From Amycolatopsis sp. DSM 110486 (GTDB lineage: Bacteria; Actinomycetota; Actinomycetes; Mycobacteriales; Pseudonocardiaceae), in NCBI RefSeq assembly GCF_019468465.1, contig NZ_CP080519.1, forward strand, positions 7,991,001-8,055,000: DNA of 64,000 bases. Reading direction: 5' to 3'. Below, in pieces: positions 18,406 through 24,123 of this stretch. The notes under the pieces were generated by a model that had not been told where the DNA came from, did not search any database, and worked only from the letters and a program-made list of their open reading frames with translations. Every line of letters starts with the position of its first letter. The stretch's first letter is position 1. The position numbers and the translations under genes are program-made.

Positions 18406-19809
18406 TCACACCGTCACGGCCGAGCGCCAGCCGGGGTGGTAGCTCTCGCGCGCCATCGCCGAGTACGGAGCCGGGCTGACGATGGCCCGGACGGAGAACT
18501 GTTCGTGCGGCTGCACGGTGGTCTTGCGGGAGCCGCCGTCCGGTTCGCCCCAGACCACGCGGACCTCCGCTCCGAGCGGCACGTCGGGGTTGACCGTGGC
18601 CAGTGACAGGGCGGCGCGCTCGTTCGCGCTGTAGCCGGTGAACAGCGACAACCCGATCCGGTTGCCGTCGGCGTCGAGCACCGAGTCGAAGTTCGACGAG
18701 CCGTAGTTGGCGTTGGGCAGGTCGAAGAACTGGTAGCCGGGACCGTCCGGATCGACGGGTGAGGTGAGCAGGGTGCCCACGTCTTCGGCGTTCCACGCGA
18801 GGGTGACCTTGCGCCGTTGGCTCTGGGGGTCGATCGCGGCGAGCGCGTCGCGGCCGATGAAGTCGTGGTCGAACTTGACGAACGAGCCGTAGCCGAGCTC
18901 CCAGGGGTTGAGGTAGTAGTCCTCGATCCGGTCGGACACGAAGCTGCCGGCCAGCGCGTTGGTCGCCTCGTAACTTTCGGCGCCGAGCCATTCGCGGTAC
19001 GGGCGCAGCTGCTCGCCGGTGTAGATCGCGGGCAACGGCGACGGGATCCAGCCGGACTCCATCGTGTTGCACGAGTACGCGCGCGCCCCGGCCGGCTCGA
19101 GCCCGAACTCGCGGCCGGCTTCCAGGATGGTTTCGCGCACCTCGTCGTAGGTTTCGTACGGGCCCCACAGCTCCAGGCCGGGCGCGCCCGCCATCCCGTG
19201 GCGCAGGGTCCGGACCTGCCGGCCGGCGATGTTCAGGTGTCCCATGCGGAAGAACCGGACCTGCTCCACCGGGCCGCCGTGGACCTTTTCGATCACGGGC
19301 CAGGCGTTCGGGCCCTGGATCTGGAAGCGCCACAGATCCCGGGTCACCGGCTTGCCGTACGGCCGCGACGGCGACCGCTGGTCCAGCCGCAACTCGACGT
19401 CGTAGCCCTGGCTCGCGTGGAAGGTCAGCCAGTTGGCCACCGGGGCGCGGCCGACGAACACGAATTCCTCCTCGGCCAGCCGGAACAGGATGCCGTCGCC
19501 GATCACCCCGCCGTCGGGCGAGACGGGGACGAACTGCTTGGCCGAGTCGACCGGGAACTTCGCGACGCTGTTGATGCCGGTGTCGGAGATCAGCTTCAGC
19601 GCGCCGGGGCCCGAGAGGAAGAGGTTGACCATGTGGTGGGTCTGGTCGAACAGCACGGCCGTGGACCGCCAGGCGATCACCTCGCGGCGGAAGTTGGTGA
19701 ACTCGGCGGGGACGACCGGGTAGATGTAGGCGCCGAGCTGGGAATTGCGGAGCAGGTCCACCGTGTTCTCCGCCTGATCGACCACGTCCTGCAGGCTTTT
19801 CGCGCTCAT
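18406..19809 (-). CDS. Tetrahydrofolate-dependent aryl O-demethylase (LigM/DesA-like)
   Basis: The 467-aa protein has a GcvT-like aminomethyltransferase fold and nearly the length of Sphingobium LigM (471 aa). It begins [20 protein letters not shown] and carries [19 protein letters not shown] and [15 protein letters not shown], features of the vanillate/syringate O-demethylase branch, not of glycine cleavage T protein. These enzymes move the methoxyl methyl group to THF, giving 5-methyl-THF. The neighbours fit: divergent metF and purU process the C1 unit and ligAB opens the ring. ATG at 19809. Vanillate, syringate or 3-O-methylgallate are candidate substrates; which one is not decidable here. 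Confidence 0.87.
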
Positions 19810-20140
19810 GTGCGGTCCGTTCTCGTGCGACTGGTGTCTGGGTCCCGGCGGCGGTCGCACGCCGCCGGAAGGCCGAGGGCCACTCGCCGGTCCTGGGCTG
19901 CCCCCGTTGGACGGTAGGCCCGCGGAGGTGCCGAGCGTGAGGTCCCGCAGGCCGGTCTCGGCTACGTCATTCGACCTAGGCGGATCGCGCAGGGCGGACG
20001 CCCCCGTCATTTGTCGCGGTGAACTAGGCCTCCCTGCCGGACGAAAAACGATCGGCGTTCCGTTCTACTGGTGGCCGGCCGATGGCGCGCCGGTCGGCGC
20101 GGCAGGCAGCGCTTGCGGTACGAGGAAACGAGGGCGGCGC
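19810..20140. promoter_or_regulatory. Divergent promoter region of the O-demethylase and metF-ligAB operons
   Basis: A 331-bp intergenic stretch between oppositely oriented catabolic genes. It must hold both promoters and probably the LysR operator, but I cannot single out a convincing T-N11-A box or -10/-35 pair by eye. Confidence 0.5.
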
Positions 20141-21022
20141 ATGACCATCCAGCAGGAGGTTGCGGGCTCGGGGCGCCGGCGGCCGGATCTGGCCGATCTG
20201 GTGCGGACCATGAGCTACGAGGTGATGCCGTTCCGCGGCACCGAGTCGGCCGTGCTCGAGCACGTGCCCACCGCCGTCCCGTTGACGGTCACCGTCACCG
20301 AGGCGAAGGGTATCGACACCACCCTGGACCTGACCGAACGTCTGCTGCGTCACGGTTATCAGGTCGCTCCGCACCTGCCGGCGCGGCAGTTCATCGACCG
20401 CGCCCACGTCGCCGACGTGGTAACCCGCCTGCGTGAGACCGGGGGGCGGTCGGTGTTCGTCATCGGGGGTGACGCGCCGAAGCCGGCGGGCGAGTTCGCC
20501 GACGCGTACGCCTTGCTGCGGGCGATGGAGGACCTGGGCCACCCGTTCACCGACGTCGGTATCGGTGGCTACCCGGAAGGCCACGCGAAGATCCCGGCCC
20601 CCGCGCTCGAGCGGGGGTTGCGGCAGAAGGCTCCGCTCGCGACCCGCGTGATCACCCAGATCTGCTTCGACGCGGCGGTCACCGGCGCGTGGTCCGCGGG
20701 ACTCTCCGCCTCCGGGATCGACCTGCCGGTCCACATCGGACTGCCGGGCCCGGTGAACCGCCAGAAGCTCGTGCGGATCTCGGCCGGGATCGGGCTGGGG
20801 CAGTCGGCGCGGTTCCTGCGCAAGCAGCAGAACCTGATGTGGCGGTTGCTGCTGCCGCGTGGTTACGAACCGACGAAACTGGCCAGGCAGCTCGCCGCCG
20901 AGGCGCCGCGCGGCGGCAACGTCCACGGGCTGCACGTCTTCACGTTCAACGAGCTCGCGAAGACCGAAGCGTGGCGGCAGGAGCTGCTCGCCCGGGTCGA
21001 GGGAAAGGACGGGCGCGCGTGA
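20141..21022 (+). CDS. metF: Methylenetetrahydrofolate reductase-like (MetF)
   Basis: The 293-aa MetF-family flavoprotein interconverts 5-methyl-THF and 5,10-methylene-THF. Typical elements are YEVMPFRG (the Glu-containing start of the barrel), VTEAKGIDTTLDLTERLL, HLPARQFID, VFVIGGDAPKPAGEF and GIGGYPEGHAKI. It sits with the O-demethylase and purU, not methionine genes. That points to a catabolic role: oxidising the methyl-THF made by demethylation, as metF does beside ligM in Sphingobium. ATG start; 4-bp overlap with purU. Confidence 0.9.
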   Translation: MTIQQEVAGSGRRRPDLADLVRTMSYEVMPFRGTESAVLEHVPTAVPLTVTVTEAKGIDTTLDLTERLLRHGYQVAPHLPARQFIDRAHVADVVTRLRETGGRSVFVIGGDAPKPAGEFADAYALLRAMEDLGHPFTDVGIGGYPEGHAKIPAPALERGLRQKAPLATRVITQICFDAAVTGAWSAGLSASGIDLPVHIGLPGPVNRQKLVRISAGIGLGQSARFLRKQQNLMWRLLLPRGYEPTKLARQLAAEAPRGGNVHGLHVFTFNELAKTEAWRQELLARVEGKDGRA

Positions 21023-23107: not shown

Positions 23108-23811
23108 CCGCTTTCGTTCTGCTGCACGGAGCGTGGCACGGGGGCTGGGCTTGGCAGCGGGTGACCCCCGCGCTGCGCTCGGCCGGCCACGAGGTCTTCG
23201 CACCGACGCTGACCGGGCTCAGCGACCGCGCCCACCTGCTCAGCCCCGCGGTGGGGCTCGGCACGCACATCCAGGACGTCGTGAACCTGCTCGAGGCGCA
23301 CGACCTGCGCGACGTCGTGCTGGTCGGGCACAGCTACGCCGGGCAGGTGGTCACCGGTATCGCCGATCGGGTGCCCGAGCGGCTCGCCAAGCGGGTGTAC
23401 CTCGACGCGTTCGCCGGCCGTGACGGCGAAGCCGCCATCGACCTGCTGCCCGAGCAGGTCGCCGGACACTACCGCGAGTCGGTGGCCGGCCCGGGTTTCG
23501 GCTGGCTCATCCCCGTCCGGTCCCTGAGTGTGCTCGGCGTGACGGACGAGGCCGACCTGGCGTGGCTCGGCCCGCGCCTGACGCCGCAGCCGTGGCTGAC
23601 CTACACCGAGCCGCTGCGTCTCACCGGCGCGGGCGAGGGCGTGCCCGCGGAGTTCGTCGAGTGCACGGACTGGATGCGGGTGTTCCGGACCCACGCGGAG
23701 CGGGCCGCGAACCGCGGCTGGCCCGTGCACGAGATCGCCACCGGGCACGAGGCCATGGTGACCGCGCCCGGCGAGCTCGCGGACCGCCTGCTCGCGATCG
23801 CGAAGTCGTAG
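23104..23811 (+). CDS. Alpha/beta hydrolase
   Basis: A 235-aa alpha/beta-fold hydrolase. It has the oxyanion motif VLLHGAWHGGWAW, nucleophile elbow GHSYAG (Ser), a late acid, and the terminal GHEAM histidine. The ATG overlaps the ligB stop by 4 bp, so it belongs to the ring-cleavage operon. C-C hydrolysis is not needed in the standard 4,5-pathway, so ester or lactone hydrolysis (for example of a methyl ester or pyrone intermediate) is one idea; this is inference. Confidence 0.86.
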   Translation: MTAFVLLHGAWHGGWAWQRVTPALRSAGHEVFAPTLTGLSDRAHLLSPAVGLGTHIQDVVNLLEAHDLRDVVLVGHSYAGQVVTGIADRVPERLAKRVYLDAFAGRDGEAAIDLLPEQVAGHYRESVAGPGFGWLIPVRSLSVLGVTDEADLAWLGPRLTPQPWLTYTEPLRLTGAGEGVPAEFVECTDWMRVFRTHAERAANRGWPVHEIATGHEAMVTAPGELADRLLAIAKS

Positions 23812-23826
23812 CCCACCGGAGGAACC

Positions 23827-24123
23827 GTGGAATTCCTGGTCCGCACCGAGAACCTGCTCCCGCCCGAGACCCCGGACGAGCTCCGTGAGCGCCTACGCAA
23901 GGCCGAACGCGAGCGCGCGCACGAGTTGCGCGCCGCCGGTGTGCTCAAACGACTGTGGCGGGTGCCGGGCCGCAACGCGACCATCGGCCTGTACGAGGCC
24001 GAAGACCCGGCCGCCCTGCACGACGCCCTGACCTCGCTGCCGATGTGGAAGTGGATGGACGTCAACGTCGAGGCACTGGCCACTCATCCGCAGGAGCGTT
24101 CGGCGGGGAACGGAGCGCCGTGA
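23827..24123 (+). CDS. Muconolactone isomerase (MIase/CatC) family protein
   Basis: The 98-aa protein matches the small CatC fold: MEFLVRTENLLP at the start, a helix with ERERAHELRAAGVLKRLWRVPG, then LPMWKWMDVNVEALATHPQ at the end. Muconolactone isomerase shifts a double bond in the ortho pathway. Here it is the last gene of a ligAB operon, where no muconolactone is expected, so it may isomerise or hydrolyse a 4,5-cleavage product. GTG start after GGAGGAACC. Confidence 0.85.
   Translation: MEFLVRTENLLPPETPDELRERLRKAERERAHELRAAGVLKRLWRVPGRNATIGLYEAEDPAALHDALTSLPMWKWMDVNVEALATHPQERSAGNGAP

What the first reader, a model, noticed from the sequence alone, without database searches (positions are those of the whole stretch)
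18406..24123. Complete C1-plus-ring-cleavage module for methoxylated aromatics in an actinobacterium
A LigM-like THF-dependent O-demethylase is divergent from metF-purU-ligA-ligB. This combines proteobacterial (Sphingobium-style) demethylation and 4,5-extradiol cleavage, with PurU where the known cluster has a formyl-THF ligase, implying disposal of the methyl group as formate. Actinobacteria usually use P450 or Rieske demethylases and the ortho pathway.
Basis: partly seen in the sequence, partly recalled or inferred. Interest (0 to 1): 0.72.

Follow-up and report, generated by a model that had tools for sequence, protein, structure and literature searches.

The report
Actinobacterial 3-O-methylgallate catabolic gene module
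A soil actinobacterium carries a gene set that seems built to take apart methoxylated lignin acids, passing the methyl group to folate and out as formate and then opening the ring, and it appears to handle the ring-opened methyl ester with two enzymes different from those known for this job in other bacteria.

Summary
They change the reading. Of 80 actinobacterial LigM loci, 36, in five named families, hold ligB with both. Oxalomesaconate-pathway genes recur beside them. No LigC-type dehydrogenase was found near 51 ligB loci, nor a full-length one in this genome. Best reading: LigAB opens 3-O-methylgallate, the hydrolase frees methanol from the methyl-ester product, and the isomerase gives oxalomesaconate. 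This parallels the linear route of Pseudomonas NGC7, but with a different isomerase family; the hydrolases could not be compared. In one relative a VanAB-type pair stands in for LigM beside the same ring module. A 15-bp intergenic motif is shared, also in four loci not used to find it. PurU beside LigM-like demethylases is not peculiar to actinobacteria, and no recent transfer from proteobacteria is seen. The interval is not the complete pathway: lower genes lie about 1 Mb away. No activity was measured.

The parts
18406..19809 (-). LigM: THF-dependent vanillate/3-O-methylgallate O-demethylase
   Evidence: NF047885 905.2 bits, cut-off 580; aligned over residues 5-465 to PDB 5x1i, named vanillate/3-O-methylgallate O-demethylase, 701 bits; 94% to the syntenic gene of G050
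20141..21022 (+). MetF-like methylene-THF reductase, predicted to run as methyl-THF oxidation
   Evidence: PF02219 32.5 bits, cut-off 24; only PDB match at E<=0.001 is 7xg9, E 8.2e-28
21019..21891 (+). PurU: 10-formyl-THF deformylase, releases formate
   Evidence: TIGR00655 361.6 bits, cut-off 285.95
21916..22260 (+). LigA: alpha subunit of ring-opening dioxygenase
   Evidence: PF07746 126.5 bits; closest PDB chain 1b4u_A
22253..23107 (+). LigB: catalytic subunit of extradiol dioxygenase
   Evidence: NF009903 385.9 bits, cut-off 317; 1b4u_B E 1.1e-100; positions H12, H61, H127, H195, E242 of 1b4u_B kept in 51 of 51 cluster LigB, window included (that these are active-site residues is recalled)
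23104..23811 (+). Alpha/beta hydrolase overlapping ligB; predicted methylesterase of the ring-opened product (CHMOD)
   Evidence: PF12697 65.8 bits; S77 in GHSYAG and H215 invariant in 17 of 17; model resembles SABP2/MES methylesterases, but also hydroxynitrile lyases and a pyrethroid hydrolase
23827..24123 (+). Muconolactone-isomerase-like protein; predicted isomerase of the product after ester hydrolysis
   Evidence: PF02426 105.6 bits but TIGR03221 77.4 under its cut-off 130.6; model matches ClcF and muconolactone isomerase; E27 invariant in 16 of 16
17274..18284 (-). LysR-type regulator
   Evidence: PF00126, PF03466; syntenic in G050, 94%; homologue in 2 of 80 LigM loci
15783..17207 (-). 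MFS transporter, aromatic acid/H+ symporter-like
   Evidence: TIGR00895 330.4 bits, under its cut-off 418.55; homologue in 2 of 80 LigM loci
13536..15017 (+). GAF-containing sensor histidine kinase, conserved neighbour of the module
   Evidence: PF07730, PF13185; homologue in 42 of 80 LigM loci
15014..15679 (+). LuxR/NarL-type response regulator, conserved neighbour
   Evidence: PF00072, PF00196; homologue in 44 of 80 LigM loci
12073..13434 (+). MFS metabolite/H+ symporter, first gene of a transporter-kinase-regulator run
   Evidence: TIGR00883 388.8 bits, under its cut-off 443.45; homologue in 18 of 80 LigM loci
20003..20017 (+). Copy of the conserved motif TACGTCATTTGTCGC (2 mismatches) in the ligM-metF gap
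   Evidence: not significant in the window by itself, the weight comes from relatives
19963..19977 (+). Weaker second copy of the motif (TACGTCATTCGACCT, 4 mismatches, so beyond the limit)
   Evidence: placed; the matching gap of G050 (L214) has two copies with 2 mismatches each
12005..12019 (-). Copy of the motif (2 mismatches) in front of the transporter-kinase-regulator run
   Evidence: the matching copy in G050 has 1 mismatch

Best explanation
A catabolic module for syringyl-type (3,4,5-oxygenated) methoxybenzoates. LigM moves an aryl methyl group to THF (shown: family membership; inferred: activity). MetF, a FolD encoded elsewhere in the genome, and PurU oxidise and release it as formate (inferred from families and from the chloromethane precedent). 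LigAB opens the ring of 3-O-methylgallate to the methyl ester CHMOD (inferred). The overlapping alpha/beta hydrolase removes methanol from CHMOD, and the muconolactone-isomerase-like protein turns the product CHMA into oxalomesaconate (inferred). GalD, a LigJ-like hydratase and GalC, encoded about 1 Mb away, take that to pyruvate and oxaloacetate (inferred). Vanillate would be demethylated to protocatechuate and leave through the ortho pathway (inferred). A GAF-kinase/response-regulator pair is the likely switch, acting through a shared 15-bp motif (inferred).
For: Co-conservation: LigB, hydrolase and isomerase together in 36 of 80 LigM loci, five named families. Of 51 ligB loci (50 of the 80, plus an R. 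opacus plasmid): hydrolase 40, isomerase 40, GalC 36, GalB 21, and no LigC within the flanks held. Profile over 120 relatives including own: LigB at >=72% and the hydrolase at >=65% both fall in the same five genomes, G000, G005, G050, G086, G089; the isomerase at >=76% in those five plus G057, a partial match (one search scored at most 23 candidates a genome). G089 has no LigM but a VanA/VanB-like pair beside HK-RR-GalB-GalC-hydrolase-isomerase-LigA-LigB, the logic of the NGC7 operon, whose hydrolase mutant turned syringate into PDC (PMC12314914, sections 4, 10, 12, 20); an actinobacterial VanAB is reported to turn syringate into 3-O-methylgallate (PMC9867520, passages). Sphingomonad pLA3: ligB-ligA-purU-metF, a hydrolase and a LigM-like demethylase, and a SnoaL_4 protein. 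Own genome: GalD 517.1 bits (cut-off 440) and GalC 313.7 (cut-off 179). The hydrolase model's best matches include methylsalicylate esterase SABP2 and MES16. R. opacus plasmid pRop44186_a carries a fuller set in one block, though with no GalD in the stretch read.
Against: No activity, expression or growth data. The window lacks the DesA-like paralogue found near many relatives' LigM, and the genome's other paralogue (L119) falls outside that clade, though as a long branch of unsure place, so the source of 3-O-methylgallate here is unclear. GalB is missing and must be replaced by the LigJ-like protein. The genome has a LigI-like protein, 52% to a Sphingobium protein annotated as PDC hydrolase and 62-64% to three amidohydrolases beside ligAB genes, which would suit a route through PDC; a HIBADH-like dehydrogenase close by could hide an unknown CHMS dehydrogenase. 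Eleven of 51 ligB loci lack the hydrolase and eleven lack the isomerase; some stretches are short, but four Pseudonocardia loci with about 21 kb held (L056, L063, L069, L070) lack both. GalC is under the stricter TIGR02798 cut-off (281.5 against 304.5). LigA position 103 (Met here) does not discriminate. The hydrolase fold group also holds lyases. MgaC, DesC and DesD sequences were not held, so no direct comparison was made.
Confidence: 0.7

Rival explanations
1. One reading: LigM makes protocatechuate from vanillate, LigAB opens it at 4,5, and the product goes through LigC and LigI to oxalomesaconate.
For: LigB aligns best in the PDB with a protocatechuate 4,5-dioxygenase; LigI- and LigJ-like genes are in the genome; a protocatechuate 4,5-dioxygenase is annotated in the actinobacterium Arthrobacter keyseri.
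Against: No LigC near 51 ligB loci and only partial 25-37% matches in this genome, both with one A. keyseri query taken as LigC from its place beside the dioxygenase. Two adjacent intradiol dioxygenase genes, probably pcaGH, are present. A hydrolase overlapping ligB has no place in this route.
Confidence: 0.13
2. Gallate route: LigM demethylates 3-O-methylgallate to gallate, LigAB opens gallate directly to oxalomesaconate, and the hydrolase is an upstream esterase for methyl esters of aromatic acids.
For: The LigM NCBIfam equivalog covers 3-O-methylgallate; GalB, GalC and GalD are gallate-pathway enzymes; the hydrolase is methylesterase-like. LigB scores 324.9 bits with the gallate dioxygenase model, whose cut-off of 412 is set for a fused protein and says little about a split one.
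Against: The hydrolase and isomerase travel with ligAB also where LigM is missing (G089). The isomerase has no role if oxalomesaconate forms directly. LigB matches the LigB chain 1b4u_B better than gallate dioxygenase 3wku.
Confidence: 0.12
3. The hydrolase-isomerase pair serves a different ring-opened product and 3-O-methylgallate is incidental.
For: A second pair (65% and 56% identity) lies in the same genome beside Rieske, VanB-like and another LigB-family gene, with no LigM in the 19 kb read (L213).
Against: In the ligB loci the pair goes with GalC and GalB of the oxalomesaconate pathway, which point to a carboxylated trihydroxybenzoate-type substrate.
Confidence: 0.05

Closest known systems
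Linear syringate/3-O-methylgallate pathway of Pseudomonas sp. NGC7 (vanA1B1-mgaAB-mgaC-mgaD, galBCD; PMC12314914, sections 4, 10, 12 and 20 read)
   Same: LigAB-type dioxygenase, an alpha/beta hydrolase and a small isomerase in one cluster, with OMA-pathway genes; hydrolase thought to act on CHMOD
   Different: There a Rieske VanAB demethylase releasing formaldehyde and a SnoaL-like isomerase; here THF-dependent LigM with metF-purU and a muconolactone-isomerase-like protein. MgaC sequence was not held, so homology of the hydrolases is untested
Sphingobium SYK-6 ligM-metF-ligH operon, DesA, LigAB (passages of PMC6888825)
   Same: LigM and MetF; THF-dependent demethylation
   Different: LigH instead of PurU in the operon; ligABC in a separate operon there
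Novosphingobium pentaromativorans US6-1 plasmid pLA3 cluster
   Same: ligB-ligA-purU-metF divergent from a hydrolase and a LigM-like demethylase
   Different: Hydrolase gives no BLAST match to the window's at E<=0.001, though both fall in PF12697; the small protein is SnoaL_4; IclR regulator
Chloromethane plasmid pCMU01 of Methylobacterium extorquens CM4 (passages of PMC3621897)
   Same: metF2, folD, purU and folC2 as a dedicated methyl-THF to formate route
   Different: Methyl group comes from chloromethane through CmuA/CmuB
Arthrobacter keyseri pRE1 protocatechuate 4,5-dioxygenase genes
   Same: Actinobacterial LigAB-type dioxygenase with CHA aldolase
   Different: Fused alpha/beta dioxygenase with a Gfo/Idh dehydrogenase and two amidohydrolases; no LigM, MetF, PurU or hydrolase-isomerase pair annotated in the stretch read

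Membership tests
LigM (vanillate/3-O-methylgallate O-demethylase) | NCBIfam equivalog score over the curated cut-off | tested here: met
   905.2 against 580
LigM (vanillate/3-O-methylgallate O-demethylase) | Tyr and Arg recalled as key in SYK-6 LigM (Tyr247, Arg122) | tested here: met
   Y245 and R121 align with a Tyr and an Arg of 5x1i; the residue roles and numbers, and that 5x1i is from SYK-6, are recalled, from no call
LigM (vanillate/3-O-methylgallate O-demethylase) | O-demethylation with THF | not testable with these tools
   needs an assay
DesA (syringate O-demethylase) | NCBIfam equivalog score over cut-off | tested here: not met
   604 against 800
LigAB protocatechuate 4,5-dioxygenase | alpha-subunit equivalog TIGR02792 cut-off | tested here: not met
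   103.3 against 108.6, a narrow miss
LigAB-type class III extradiol dioxygenase | beta-subunit subfamily cut-off and active-site residues | tested here: met
   NF009903 385.9 against 317; five His/Glu positions kept in 51 of 51 (their roles recalled)
Protocatechuate 4,5-cleavage pathway | LigC-type CHMS dehydrogenase | tested here: not met
   0 of 51 ligB loci; only partial 25-37% matches in own genome; one query, the A. keyseri Gfo/Idh gene, named LigC by its place
Linear 3-O-methylgallate pathway (NGC7 type) | alpha/beta hydrolase for CHMOD beside LigAB | tested here: inconclusive
   hydrolase present, overlapping ligB; homology to MgaC not tested, activity unknown
Linear 3-O-methylgallate pathway (NGC7 type) | SnoaL-type MgaD | tested here: not met
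   muconolactone-isomerase-like protein in the cluster instead; a SnoaL gene elsewhere in the genome was not sought
Linear 3-O-methylgallate pathway (NGC7 type) | GalD, GalB, GalC | tested here: inconclusive
   GalD and GalC over cut-off; GalB missing, LigJ-like gene present
Muconolactone delta-isomerase (CatC) | NCBIfam equivalog TIGR03221 cut-off | tested here: not met
   77.4 against 130.6
PurU | TIGR00655 cut-off | tested here: met
   361.6 against 285.95
MetF | NCBIfam equivalog TIGR00676 cut-off | tested here: not met
   45.3 against 293.7; Pfam PF02219 cut-off met, 32.5 against 24

The most novel reading that the evidence does not exclude
Actinobacteria evolved their own solution for the methyl-ester ring-cleavage product of 3-O-methylgallate: a SABP2/MES-like methylesterase and a muconolactone-isomerase-fold CHMA isomerase, the latter unlike the SnoaL-type MgaD. 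This pair plus LigAB is a portable ring module on which folate-dependent LigM and oxygen-dependent VanAB are interchangeable, under one two-component regulon with a shared 15-bp operator.
Probability: 0.5. Interest if true: 0.66.

Novelty: new variant of a known kind. Interest (0 to 1): 0.56.

Why it matters
Syringyl lignin catabolism is worked out in a few proteobacteria. This gives a testable gene set for it in Amycolatopsis, Nonomuraea, Streptomyces, Geodermatophilaceae and a Rhodococcus plasmid, names two candidate new enzymes, and gives a route that should avoid formaldehyde at the LigM step. A deletion of the hydrolase gene should make PDC, a polymer building block, as it did in NGC7.

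Tried and rejected
Amidohydrolase pair 9129-11353 as LigI/LigJ: rejected, the first of the two matches PDB amidohydrolases of a group that, with a small Rieske protein beside it, is described as dinuclear oxygenases. PEP-mutase-like gene 27535-28323 as part of the module: not followed further. LigA position 103 as a marker of substrate: not discriminating. Exact inverted repeats (6-base arms, spacer up to 8) in the divergent gaps: none shared by more than 2 of 45 gaps; the shared motif is a plain 15-mer. Motif in the window alone: 2 sites against 0.97 expected, not significant. Absence of LigI near the loci: weak, since this genome's LigI-like gene is 1 Mb away. Recent transfer from proteobacteria: not seen in a 49-row quick tree, which used 27 of the 81 LigM rows at >=60% identity from the loci and 9 of the 34 rows under 60%, plus the two of the R. 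opacus plasmid. Paper searches that could have turned up a printed description of the actinobacterial cluster. From the listings and abstract starts I saw none, and looked at passages of only a few; only open-licence PMC texts are held. PMC9296663 (passages) reports a LigM-type gene in a Micromonosporaceae MAG, and PMC12314914 reports Actinomycetes with predicted full syringate gene sets, so parts are in print. PMC3534580 (passages) concerns purU in a sarcosine cluster and did not help.
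Full report
What is there. The named genes are real: LigM on the minus strand, then after a 331-bp gap metF-like, purU, ligA and ligB on the plus strand. LigB with its TTG start overlaps the end of ligA. An alpha/beta hydrolase (23104-23811) overlaps the end of ligB, and a 98-residue muconolactone-isomerase-like protein follows (23827-24123).

How rare it is. LigM over the family cut-off is found in 4 of 120 relatives and in 9 of 296 genomes drawn across the phylum, own genome counted in both. It is an accessory trait.

Conservation. A scan of named genomes with a LigM alignment gave 80 loci, the best 80 of 172, all Actinomycetota, in 15 named families with three loci unassigned. 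Of the 80, LigA is found in 53, LigB 50, MetF 50, hydrolase 45, isomerase 45, response regulator 44, kinase 42, PurU 35. LigB, hydrolase and isomerase stand together in 36 of 80, in five named families: Geodermatophilaceae, Pseudonocardiaceae, Streptosporangiaceae, Streptomycetaceae and Nocardioidaceae. Clustering of called genes adds neighbours absent from the window: a GalC-like aldolase (45 loci), FolD (33), a PIG-L protein in the place of GalB (24), a GalD-like tautomerase (21), and 34 LigM paralogues at 44-49% identity to the window LigM. Three of those 34 were scanned: each scores higher with the DesA than with the LigM model (554-574 against 479-522), under both cut-offs. Curated models name one aldolase (323.5 against 179, but 293.6 against 304.5 with TIGR02798) and one tautomerase (499.3 against 440); no model names the PIG-L protein. 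The R. opacus plasmid pRop44186_a, annotated by others, has most of these in one block with pabB, a Mur-ligase-family gene that may be folC, folP and fdhD; no GalD lies in the stretch read. In 24 of the 80 loci none of LigB, hydrolase and isomerase lies in the stretch held.

Which ring is opened. Protocatechuate 4,5-cleavage needs LigC. None was found near 51 ligB loci, nor a full-length one in this genome, while two adjacent intradiol dioxygenase genes, probably pcaGH, are present among seven PF00775 matches. Both LigC tests use one query, an A. keyseri Gfo/Idh gene that I name LigC from its place beside the dioxygenase. The absence of LigI near the loci is weak evidence, because this genome's LigI-like gene is 1 Mb away. 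Gallate cleavage gives oxalomesaconate directly and needs neither hydrolase nor isomerase. 3-O-methylgallate gives a methyl ester, CHMOD. In Pseudomonas NGC7 a hydrolase mutant turned syringate into PDC (95% mol/mol), the sign of unprocessed CHMOD (PMC12314914, section 12). Novosphingobium aromaticivorans LigAB makes CHMOD from 3-O-methylgallate (PMC8091115, passages).

Independent tests. In the same 120 relatives, LigB at >=72% and the hydrolase at >=65% fall in the same five genomes, and the isomerase at >=76% in those five and G057, where the match is partial and LigB is missing. One of the five, G089, has no LigM. It has a VanA/VanB-like pair (34% and 30% to Sphingobium proteins) next to kinase, regulator, GalB, GalC, hydrolase, isomerase, LigA and LigB. 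So the ring module is kept while the demethylase differs. A Rhodococcus ruber VanAB is reported to turn syringate into 3-O-methylgallate (PMC9867520, passages). In sphingomonads, Novosphingobium pLA3 has ligB-ligA-purU-metF, a hydrolase with a LigM-like demethylase, and a SnoaL_4 protein. That hydrolase gives no BLAST match to the window's at E<=0.001, though both fall in Abhydrolase_6, so the two were perhaps recruited separately. Against: four Pseudonocardia loci with about 21 kb held (L056, L063, L069, L070) have ligAB but neither hydrolase nor isomerase in view.

The two missed enzymes. The hydrolase model (mean pLDDT 80.7, two stretches under 50) is closest to a Paenibacillus hydrolase described as SABP2-like; SABP2, MES16, the pyrethroid hydrolase PytH and hydroxynitrile lyases follow. 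S77 and H215 are invariant in 17 of 17; the expected acid position is D189 in the window but Asp or Ser in the others, so the third triad residue is not settled. The isomerase model (88.3) matches ClcF and muconolactone isomerase. Its E27, the position mutated in the ClcF-substrate structure 3zo7 according to that entry's title, is invariant in 16 of 16. It fails the muconolactone isomerase equivalog cut-off.

The C1 branch. MetF, FolD and PurU serve the oxidation of methyl-THF to formate in a chloromethane user, on a plasmid that also has folC2 (PMC3621897, passages). The window lacks folD; one copy lies in the second demethylase cluster of this genome with folP, metF and purU (L119). A formate dehydrogenase gene, with SelA- and SelB-like genes (names recalled from sequence), lies just upstream of the window (NF041513 1508.7 against 1400 for its longer piece), its last subunits at window 2-1764. 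LigM-metF-purU also stands on Agrobacterium pAt, so PurU is not an actinobacterial peculiarity.

Regulation. Forty-five divergent gaps, the window's included, yielded a shared 15-mer, TACGTCATTTGTCGC, pieced from 9-mers found in up to 20 of them. At up to 2 mismatches it occurs 85 times in 47 of 81 loci (80 plus window), 78 of them intergenic; 20 shuffled motifs gave 0-2 hits each. These loci include those from which it was read. In four loci not used to find it (L137, L212, L214, L215) there are 8 sites at up to 2 mismatches against a mean of 0.1 and a maximum of 1 in 50 shuffles; seven of the eight are classed intergenic. L214 is the window's closest relative and gives three of the eight. 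The window has copies in the ligM-metF gap and before the transporter-kinase-regulator run. Of 45 loci with the regulator 35 have a site, and 12 have a site without the regulator in view, so the link to this regulator is suggestive only.

Origin. In a 49-row quick tree the 29 actinobacterial LigM rows are one side of a branch (SH-aLRT 97), next to 5x1i, Novosphingobium RL4 and two Agrobacterium sequences. An old exchange between phyla is possible in either direction; a recent one into this lineage is not seen. Few proteobacterial rows (9) were used.

What stays open. No activity was measured. The window's own source of 3-O-methylgallate is unclear, because the DesA-like paralogue is missing here and the other paralogue of this genome falls outside that clade as a long branch. 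The LigI-like gene and a neighbouring dehydrogenase leave room for a protocatechuate branch.

Noticed in passing
window 9129-11862 (-): Two PF04909 'amidohydrolase' genes with a small Rieske ferredoxin. The one at 10229-11353 matches 6m1w_B at E 1.8e-76, and the layout is that described for amidohydrolase-related dinuclear oxygenases such as AibH1H2 with AibG in PMC10811679 (passages).
   Followed up: partly
window 2-1764 and L118 (G000:C1:7981001-7992500): Formate dehydrogenase locus: SelA- and SelB-like genes (names recalled), an alpha subunit in two pieces of one frame with a TGA between them, as for a selenocysteine codon, and Fe-S and NrfD-like subunits at the start of the window.
   Followed up: partly
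L119 (G000:C1:9957390-9962673): Second THF-demethylase cluster in the same genome: a LigM/DesA-like gene under both NCBIfam cut-offs, with purU, metF, folP and folD, beside genes that look like a FAD hydroxylase and an oxygenase; the demethylase is a long branch in the tree.
   Followed up: partly
L213 (G000:C1:10315001-10334000), 13424-14502: Second hydrolase-isomerase pair (65% and 56%) next to Rieske, VanB-like and LigB-family genes, without LigM in the stretch read.
   Followed up: partly
L137, R. opacus plasmid pRop44186_a: Most of the LigM/LigAB/GalBC set with folate-synthesis genes on a 745-kb plasmid typed as mobilizable.
   Followed up: partly
loci L038-L117: Folate-synthesis genes recur near the module: a PabB-like gene in 17 of 80 loci and a FolP-like gene in 9 of 80 (names from the R. 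opacus annotation and recall), as if THF supply were tied to demethylation.
   Followed up: no
window 33-52 kb: Dense run of genes that look like universal stress, CBS-domain and nitroreductase-like proteins, judged by eye from the gene starts; no family search was run.
   Followed up: no
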